Below are positions 29,567 through 50,716 of a stretch of DNA of 64,000 bases, in pieces. Each line of letters begins with the position of its first letter. The stretch's first letter is position 1. The notes beneath the pieces are model-generated. The model had not been told where the DNA came from. It did not search any database and saw only the letters and a program-made list of their open reading frames with translations. A program made the translations under genes and the position numbers. Origin of the DNA: Bolinopsis microptera (Eukaryota; Ctenophora; Tentaculata; Lobata; Bolinopsidae); NCBI RefSeq assembly GCF_026151205.1, contig NC_087075.1:13004303-13068302 (forward strand), given 5' to 3'.

Positions 29567-29985
29567 GTTGGAAGAGAGTATATTTAAAAAAGAACAAGAT
29601 CCGTCTGCATCTACATTTTACACCAATGCGAGGTAAGATCTGTCTGCATCTACATTTTACACCAATACGAGGTAAGATCTGTTTGCATCTACATTTTACA
29701 CCAATGCGAGGTAAGATCTGTCTGCATCTAAATTTTACACCAATGTGAGGTAAGATCTGTCTGCATCTACATTTTACACCAATGCGAGGTAAGATCTGTC
29801 TGCATCTACATTTTACACCAATGCGAGGTAAGATCTGTCTGCATCTACATTTTACACCAATGCGAGGTAAGATCTGTCTGCATCTACATTTTTCACCAAT
29901 GCGAGGTAAGATCTGTCTGCATCTACATTTTACACCAATGCGTGGTAAGATCTGTCTGCATCTACATTTTACACCAATGCGAGGT
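29567..29985 (+). repeat. Anoctamin exon end plus splice donor amplified ~9-10 times (39 bp)
   Basis: The exon 29567-29632 ends CACCAATGCGAG|GTAAGATC. From 29593 the last ~25 exon bases plus ~14 intron bases recur as a 39-bp unit (GTAAGATCTGTCTGCATCTA plus the rest). Each copy keeps AG|GTAAGA, a strong donor. The unit is 13 codons long, so the frame stays open through the copies. Confidence 0.92.

Positions 29986-50716: not shown

What the first reader, a model, noticed from the sequence alone, without database searches (positions are those of the whole stretch)
29567..48256. Tandem duplications repeatedly straddle exon-intron junctions of one gene
In the anoctamin gene, partial exon copies that keep the splice site lie beside real exons at 29593-29985, 35857-35926, 38246-38278, 38725-39092, ~41028, 41419-41511, 42348-42380, 42765-42812, ~43986-44020 (exon interior), 44911-45026, 45391-45740, 46096-46722, ~47098 and 47843/48008. 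Some copy acceptor plus exon start, others exon end plus donor; copy number runs from 2 to ~10. Weaker cases occur in the USP gene (21902-21980). So many independent events at junctions in one gene look non-random. Known biology: tandem duplication of an AGGT-containing segment can create a new intron. Inference: this genome has a process, or selection regime, that favours or tolerates duplications anchored at splice sites.
Basis: partly seen in the sequence, partly recalled or inferred. Interest (0 to 1): 0.88.

Follow-up and report, generated by a model that had tools for sequence, protein, structure and literature searches.

The report
Splice-junction minisatellites in a ctenophore gene
Short tandem copies of exon edges, each still carrying its splice site, sit beside many exons of one ion-channel-like gene of what looks like a comb jelly; the same oddity is known from lancelet genes, so it is real and instructive but not a new kind of thing.

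Summary
The gene at 29567-50716 is an anoctamin (28 exons modelled). At 13 of the 14 listed places in it, a partial exon copy with its splice site lies in the adjoining intron (2 to 10 copies, spacing 33-150 bp). One listed case (~47098) is only a 14-of-15 base match, and the USP case did not appear. A separately assembled second copy of the gene, 1.2 Mb away, carries the same units, with different copy numbers at 6 of 11 comparable junctions (7 versus 16, 2 versus 8, 3 versus 1), so these are live minisatellites. They match "mirages", minisatellite-like duplications of intron/exon boundaries described in amphioxus. The genome fits the ctenophore Bolinopsis microptera. The claim of a junction-seeking process is only partly supported. 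By base coverage, junctions are less covered than introns (11 of 54 versus 17.3 expected on rotation). By event count, this gene has an excess (11 of 18 versus 2.75), while 29 other gene loci show a weaker one (11 of 42 versus 5.77; 8 of 33 versus 4.75 after removing sister copies). Nine of ten mirage-bearing introns tested are old, so these duplications did not create them.

The parts
29567..50716 (+). Anoctamin (TMEM16) gene, 28 exons modelled (any exons upstream of 29567 not modelled; a mini-exon is probably missing between exons 5 and 6)
   Evidence: Exon contexts and phases; Pfam; PDB Anoctamin-1; aligner recovers exons 6-28
29596..29986 (+). Exon 1 donor array, 39 bp x 10; of the nine later copies eight keep GTAAGA and the last has GTACCG
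35709..35919 (+). Exon 5 donor: 51 exon + 10 intron bases at 35709-35769 copied at 35859-35919, 98% identical, with a 36-bp minisatellite between
38213..38280 (+). Exon 6 donor, 33 bp x 2, perfect; second donor GTTTTT is weak, reading frame stays open
38725..39092 (+). Exon 7 acceptor array, 52 bp x 7 (CAG|GATTTC...); all six upstream acceptors lead to a stop codon
41020..41108 (+). Exon 11 acceptor, 16-bp copy joined to the intronic GTTACCATAGTAAC minisatellite (weak)
41413..41653 (+). Exon 12 acceptor, 97-bp block in two copies 144 bp apart
42258..42380 (+). Exon 14 donor, 32-bp block in two copies 91 bp apart
42678..42814 (+). Exon 15 donor, 48-bp block in two copies 89 bp apart, GTTACCATAGTAAC minisatellite between
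43935..44019 (+). Exon 16 donor, 54-bp unit, second copy truncated (three copies in the second gene copy)
44912..45043 (+). Exon 19 acceptor, about 51 bp x 3; single copy in the second gene copy
45391..45734 (+). Exon 20 acceptor array, 57 bp x 6
46094..46723 (+). Exon 21 donor, 7 copies of exon end + donor inside units of 87 and 66 bp built with a GTTACCATAGTTAC minisatellite
47831..48214 (+). Exon 24 acceptor, 3 copies, units (139 bp) containing the AACCTGGT repeat

Best explanation
These are "mirages": minisatellites whose repeat unit happens to include a splice junction. Shown: short segments (about 30-150 bp) of the gene were duplicated locally; where the segment held a junction, the copies lie on the intron side and nearly all keep their GT or AG; copy number differs between two near-identical copies of the gene; most of the introns are older than the duplications. 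Inferred: the first duplication comes from ordinary replication slippage or break repair, and later growth and shrinkage from slippage or unequal exchange. They are tolerated because the spliceosome, defining the exon from its other end, uses the copy that gives the shortest exon, so the intact message is kept and the extra copies leave with the intron. The excess in this gene reflects a locally high minisatellite load (35% of intron bases) plus survival of duplications that leave the coding sequence intact, with at most a modest extra preference for junctions.
For: Units are specific to the gene and place: the exon-7 unit was found only at the window locus and its second copy. The second copy at C4:11858001-11878000 (9 mismatches in 1302 bases over 11 exons) has the same units with counts 16/7, 8/2, 3/2, 1/3, 7/6, 4/7 (second/window) at six junctions and equal counts at five. 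34 of 36 properly placed decoy copies keep a canonical GT or AG (three further rows of that call were set off register by me). 9 of 10 mirage-bearing introns tested are shared in codon and phase with other anoctamin loci. Straddling and purely intronic events do not differ in identity between copies: median 0.970 (n=22) versus 0.974 (n=38), P 0.24, as expected if one process makes both. Same structures in other anoctamins and a kinesin of this genome. Amphioxus mirages: same anatomy, both boundaries, haplotype copy-number differences, RT-PCR suggesting regular splicing (PMC3087553, passages read).
Against: Event counts in this gene (11 of 18 versus 2.75) are far above the neutral placement null, and other loci lean the same way (11 of 42 versus 5.77, P 0.019). 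If arrays that merely end within 6 bases of a junction are counted too, the other loci give 15 of 42 versus 7.51 (P 0.003), or 11 of 33 versus 6.11 (P 0.022) without sister copies. Arrays tend to start at donors: in 24 gene loci, 12 of 107 arrays had an edge within -4 to +8 bases of a junction, 10 of them at donors, against 4.22 expected for 0 to +8 on both sides together. No RNA was available, so use of the shortest-exon copy is inferred from reading frame. 27 of the 34 canonical decoys, if used, would bring in a stop codon, so some cost is likely.
Confidence: 0.7

Rival explanations
1. A junction-seeking mutational or repair process (for example breaks or template switches at donors during transcription) makes duplications start at splice sites.
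For: Excess of straddling events in this gene and, more weakly, in 29 other loci, stronger when arrays ending within 6 bases of a junction are counted (15 of 42 versus 7.51, P 0.003); 10 of 12 junction-touching array edges lie at donors; in the window gene 8 of 12 measured units take only 0-14 intron bases beyond the junction.
Against: Base coverage of junctions is below intron coverage; the intron share of 22 straddling units does not differ from uniform (KS P 0.12); the strict excess outside this gene drops to P 0.08 without sister copies; myosins plus USP give 1 of 9 versus 1.08; USP, 4 of 6 kinesins and 4 of 5 myosins show none.
Confidence: 0.2
2. One-sided constraint: straddling duplications are only easier to see, because the exon copy does not decay while purely intronic copies decay on both sides.
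For: Would give up to about twofold excess (my reasoning), close to the 1.7-1.9 fold seen outside the chosen gene.
Against: Straddling events do not look older than intronic ones; cannot give the fourfold excess in the window gene.
Confidence: 0.3
3. Tandem duplication of AGGT segments is creating introns here.
For: Exon 1 array: duplication put exonic AAGAT behind GAGGT, giving a donor GTAAGA that scores higher than the last copy's GTACCG.
Against: 9 of 10 mirage-bearing introns tested are shared with other anoctamin loci; the second gene copy has the intron before exon 19 without the duplication.
Confidence: 0.05
4. Assembly error: false expansion of repeats by a long-read assembler.
For: If the genome is B. 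microptera, it was assembled with wtdbg and polished with pilon (PMC10232365, passages); the intron after exon 21 of the second copy looks badly polished.
Against: Same units at the same junctions in a second copy at another place of the assembly, with distinct numbers and sequence differences between copies.
Confidence: 0.05
5. A mobile element of the introner type inserts at splice sites.
For: Only that GTTACCATAGTAAC minisatellites recur in 4 of 41 loci, two of these being the second gene copy.
Against: Each unit contains its own exon's sequence; the exon-7 unit was found nowhere else (one unit tested of 13).
Confidence: 0.02

Closest known systems
Amphioxus 'mirages' (Adh3, globins BflGb6 and BflGb9: PMC3087553; TnC and PGBD5: PMC3902484; passages of both read)
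   Same: Minisatellite-like tandem duplications of either intron/exon boundary; many copies keep AG/GT; copy number differs between haplotypes; units of 10-160 bp
   Different: Other phylum (ctenophore by inference); 13 junctions in one gene; some units fused with recurrent intronic minisatellites; splicing not tested here
Human internal tandem repeats at exon-intron boundaries in segmental duplications (PMC2812944, part 1 of 6 and passages read)
   Same: Boundary minisatellites whose copy number differs between recent gene copies, mean unit 30 bp
   Different: There they alter transcripts and can form new introns; here most of the introns are old and the copies lie in introns
Intron gain by tandem genomic duplication (review PMC3443670, passages read)
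   Same: Local duplication that carries splice signals
   Different: No new intron in 9 of 10 cases tested: positions shared with other anoctamin loci

Membership tests
Mirage (boundary minisatellite) | Tandem duplication spanning an intron/exon boundary | tested here: met
   13 of 14 listed places; several of the two-copy cases have other sequence between the copies
Mirage (boundary minisatellite) | Both 5' and 3' boundaries affected | tested here: met
   7 donors (exons 1,5,6,14,15,16,21) and 6 acceptors (7,11,12,19,20,24)
Mirage (boundary minisatellite) | Copies carry AG/GT signals | tested here: met
   34 of 36 properly placed decoys; one exon-20 copy lost its AG and the truncated exon-16 copy has no donor
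Mirage (boundary minisatellite) | Length instability between haplotypes | tested here: inconclusive
   Counts differ at 6 of 11 junctions between two gene copies, but allele or recent duplicate is not settled
Mirage (boundary minisatellite) | Regular splicing in spite of decoys | not testable with these tools
   No RNA data
Intron gain by tandem duplication | Intron absent from relatives and lying between the copies | tested here: not met
   9 of 10 introns shared in codon and phase with other anoctamin loci; intron 21 not shared, introns 1 and 5 not tested
Introner element | Same sequence inserted in many genes | tested here: not met
   Exon-7 unit only at the two gene copies; one unit tested of 13

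The most novel reading that the evidence does not exclude
In a ctenophore genome a DNA-level process, tied to transcription or to sequence at 5' splice sites, starts tandem duplications at splice junctions more often than elsewhere in introns, flooding genes with decoy splice sites that exon definition filters out; mirages would then be an ancient or recurrent animal feature, not a lancelet curiosity.
Probability: 0.2. Interest if true: 0.75.

Novelty: new member of a known kind. Interest (0 to 1): 0.5.

Why it matters
It extends boundary minisatellites from lancelets to what is very likely a comb jelly, with 13 cases in one gene and a second gene copy showing their turnover. That gives a natural test of how the spliceosome picks one site among many identical neighbours, and makes the question whether tandem duplication seeks splice sites countable in any well-annotated ctenophore genome.

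Tried and rejected
- Base-coverage test first suggested no effect; the event test disagreed. I report both, since large intronic arrays dominate base coverage while the event test treats each array once. An earlier, simpler event null gave 11 of 19 versus 2.59 for this gene and 9 of 30 versus 3.43 for 17 other loci in its table, L011 left out.
- "Anchoring" (units ending just past the junction) looked strong in the window gene but was not significant over 22 units (KS P 0.12).
- Frame bias of unit length: counted by hand, 8 of 13 window spacings are multiples of three (exon 19's is 51 and 50), and 3 of 9 straddling units in other anoctamin loci; no formal test run; not claimed.
- blastn self-comparison missed overlapping arrays; replaced by my own scan.
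- L033 exon 5444-5513 is a model artefact inside a repeat: two of the 17 covered junctions come from it; that cluster was excluded from the event test as overlapping several introns. L039's exon end at 1911 is doubtful and counts only at unit >=15. L030's straddling event is a copy of exon interior. Models with low scores (L015, L016, L021, L026-L028) are less reliable. A tenth USP exon (22770-22796) used breaks the frame and was dropped. The USP model starts at 15935, so the array at 13809-15552 was outside the tests.
- Introns flanked by an exon under 29 bases were left out of the event and per-gene tests. L011 (second gene copy) was left out of the "other loci" counts. The cases at exons 11 and 16 fall below the event test's thresholds and are not among its 11.
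- More gene families: a wider kinesin sample could not be fetched, so the comparison is 29 loci: 17 anoctamins, 5 myosins, 6 kinesins, and USP of the window. SNF and P-type ATPase searches were not followed by fetching.
- Print searches. Those with ctenophore terms (46, 57, 83) and those on boundary minisatellites (47, 50, 84) listed no ctenophore case; I saw listings and the passages cited. The held library lacks most subscription papers and bioRxiv. The original Adh paper was not looked up; Gao & Lynch 2009 is not held.

Full report
WHAT IS THERE. The window lies at C4:13004303-13068302 of a 264,652,675-base genome in 232 contigs. Size and largest contig seen (C1, 26,206,493 bases) match the table entry for the ctenophore Bolinopsis microptera (265 Mb, 13 chromosomes, largest 26.2 Mb; PMC11797021, passages). 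The entry lists 346 scaffolds, not 232, so the name is an inference. I modelled the gene at 29567-50716 from its splice signals and reading frame: 28 exons, all 27 introns GT/AG. It is an anoctamin. One phase break between exons 5 and 6 suggests a missed mini-exon. Exons upstream of 29567 were not modelled.

THE REPEATS ARE REAL. An ungapped direct-repeat scan (offset 9-600) finds 11 of 55 junctions inside a duplicate or array at threshold 18. Two more, exon 11 acceptor and exon 16, appear at threshold 16. With the exon 21 and 24 arrays counted once each, that makes 13 of the 14 places listed. The last, ~47098, is a 14-of-15 match. The USP case did not appear. Nineteen events with unit >=25 bp exist in the gene; 30 dinucleotide-preserving shuffles give none. 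Tandem Repeats Finder agrees on the main arrays.

ANATOMY. Seven donors (exons 1, 5, 6, 14, 15, 16, 21) and six acceptors (7, 11, 12, 19, 20, 24) are affected. The extra copies lie on the intron side. Of 36 properly placed decoy copies, 34 keep a canonical splice site; if used, 27 of the 34 would bring in a stop codon, and 7 stay open (two at exon 1, one each at exons 6 and 12, three at exon 20). At exon 7 all six upstream acceptors lead to a stop, so the last one must serve. In exon 1 the duplication put exonic AAGAT behind GAGGT, giving donor GTAAGA; the last copy, facing the old intron, has GTACCG. Several units are fused with intronic minisatellites: GTTACCATAGTAAC near exons 11 and 15, GTTACCATAGTTAC at exon 21, AACCTGGT at exon 24.

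A SECOND COPY SHOWS TURNOVER. C4:11858001-11878000, minus strand, holds a second copy of the gene (loci L011, L034): 9 mismatches in 1302 exon bases over 11 exons of equal length; long blastn blocks, exons included, are mostly 93-99% identical, lower in the repeat-rich intron after exon 21. Copy counts, window/second: exon 7, 7/16; exon 12, 2/8; exon 16, 2/3; exon 19, 3/1; exon 20, 6/7; exon 21, 7/4 (poorly polished there); equal at exons 6, 11, 14, 15 and 24. So 6 of 11 differ; exons 1 and 5 lie outside the stretch fetched. The second copy reaches at least window 54133. For window 7900-9400 no second copy was among the 40 matches scored of 106 candidates. It could be an unpurged allele or a recent inverted duplicate; I cannot tell. 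Either way it sits at another place of the assembly, which speaks against an artefact.

THE INTRONS ARE OLD. For introns 6 to 27, 9 of 10 mirage-bearing introns sit at the same codon (within 1) and phase in at least one of 16 other anoctamin loci; for the remaining introns it is 6 of 12. Those duplications therefore came later than the introns and did not create them. Intron 21 was not shared; introns 1 and 5 were not tested.

IS IT NON-RANDOM? Three views. (a) Base coverage: 35% of intron bases in this gene lie in duplicates (6473 of 18273), and junction coverage is lower than random rotation (11 of 54 versus 17.3, SD 3.6); USP 0 of 18 versus 4.9. In 29 other loci 17 of 488 junctions versus 19.5% of intron bases (15 without the L033 artefact). 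(b) Events: letting each array (unit >=25) lie anywhere in introns or overlap an exon edge by at most one unit, this gene has 11 straddling of 18, expected 2.75 (none of 50,000 simulations reached 11). But the gene was picked for this. The 29 others have 11 of 42, expected 5.77, P 0.019; without three sister copies 8 of 33, expected 4.75, P 0.08. With units >=15 it is 15 of 65, expected 7.58, P 0.005, and 10 of 50, expected 5.89, P 0.055. Counting arrays that end within 6 bases of a junction too: 15 of 42 versus 7.51 (P 0.003), 11 of 33 versus 6.11 (P 0.022), 20 of 65 versus 10.5 (P 0.002), 14 of 50 versus 8.0 (P 0.017) (all). Myosins plus USP alone: 1 of 9 versus 1.08. (c) Array edges, 24 loci: 12 of 107 arrays have an edge within -4 to +8 of a junction, 10 at donors; two of these (L017, L019) look like one inherited array, and the expectation of 4.22 covers 0 to +8 only. 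Straddling and intronic events do not differ in identity between copies. I conclude: a strong local excess in this gene, a weaker excess elsewhere that depends on how sister copies and junction-abutting arrays are counted, no proof of a junction-seeking process.

OTHER GENES. Mirages also occur in other anoctamin loci: L012 acceptor, 65 bp over 1.95 kb; L025 donor, 46 bp over 0.74 kb; L018 and L020 donors, 43 bp; L019 donor, 31 bp; L017 acceptor; and in kinesin L041 donor. The three kinesin genes first sampled (L036-L038) have no duplicates at this threshold. Load differs widely between genes (intron coverage 0 to 65%).

WHAT IT IS. The literature has a name for this: mirages, minisatellite-like duplications of intron/exon boundaries in amphioxus globin and Adh3 genes, with 6 versus 3 units in two haplotypes and RT-PCR suggesting regular splicing (PMC3087553, passages), echoed for TnC and PGBD5 (PMC3902484, passage). 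Human boundary repeats behave similarly (PMC2812944). The case here works like these and meets the testable defining features, except that splicing and allelism are untested. Mechanism of origin (slippage, template switching, patch repair of breaks) and choice of the shortest exon are inferences from general knowledge.

Noticed in passing
window 13809-15552 and exon from 15553: A 33-bp array of about 51 copies ends exactly at the acceptor of what looks like an upstream USP exon (15553-15748); units carry CCCTCAG. It is also open in frame over long stretches, so it could be coding instead.
   Followed up: partly
G000:C4:11854404-11878000 (L011, L034): Inverted second copy of the anoctamin gene and the downstream LamG-like gene, 1.2 Mb from the window; allele or duplicate unknown; one intron reads as poorly polished sequence.
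   Followed up: partly
window 52589-53661, minus strand: Laminin_G_3-like reading frame with an in-frame 21-bp (7-residue) repeat of about 24 copies.
   Followed up: no
window 30309-33472, minus strand: LINE-like reading frames (RVT_1 in one) inside intron 2 of the anoctamin gene.
   Followed up: no
L001, L002, L004, L025: Several intron-poor anoctamin paralogs with long open frames, perhaps retrocopies; L025 has a 46-bp donor array in one of its few introns.
   Followed up: partly
L012:2418-4367 (plus strand): Acceptor plus 59 of 61 modelled exon bases repeated about 30 times (65-bp unit).
   Followed up: partly
L030:3084-3430: 65-bp piece of a myosin exon interior copied 282 bases on, in the next intron.
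   Followed up: partly
window 7900-8158: Dispersed element with at least 39 further near-identical copies in the genome (capped list).
   Followed up: no
window 35760-38140: Reading frame breaks between exons 5 and 6 (3n+2 bases missing), so an unseen mini-exon is likely.
   Followed up: no
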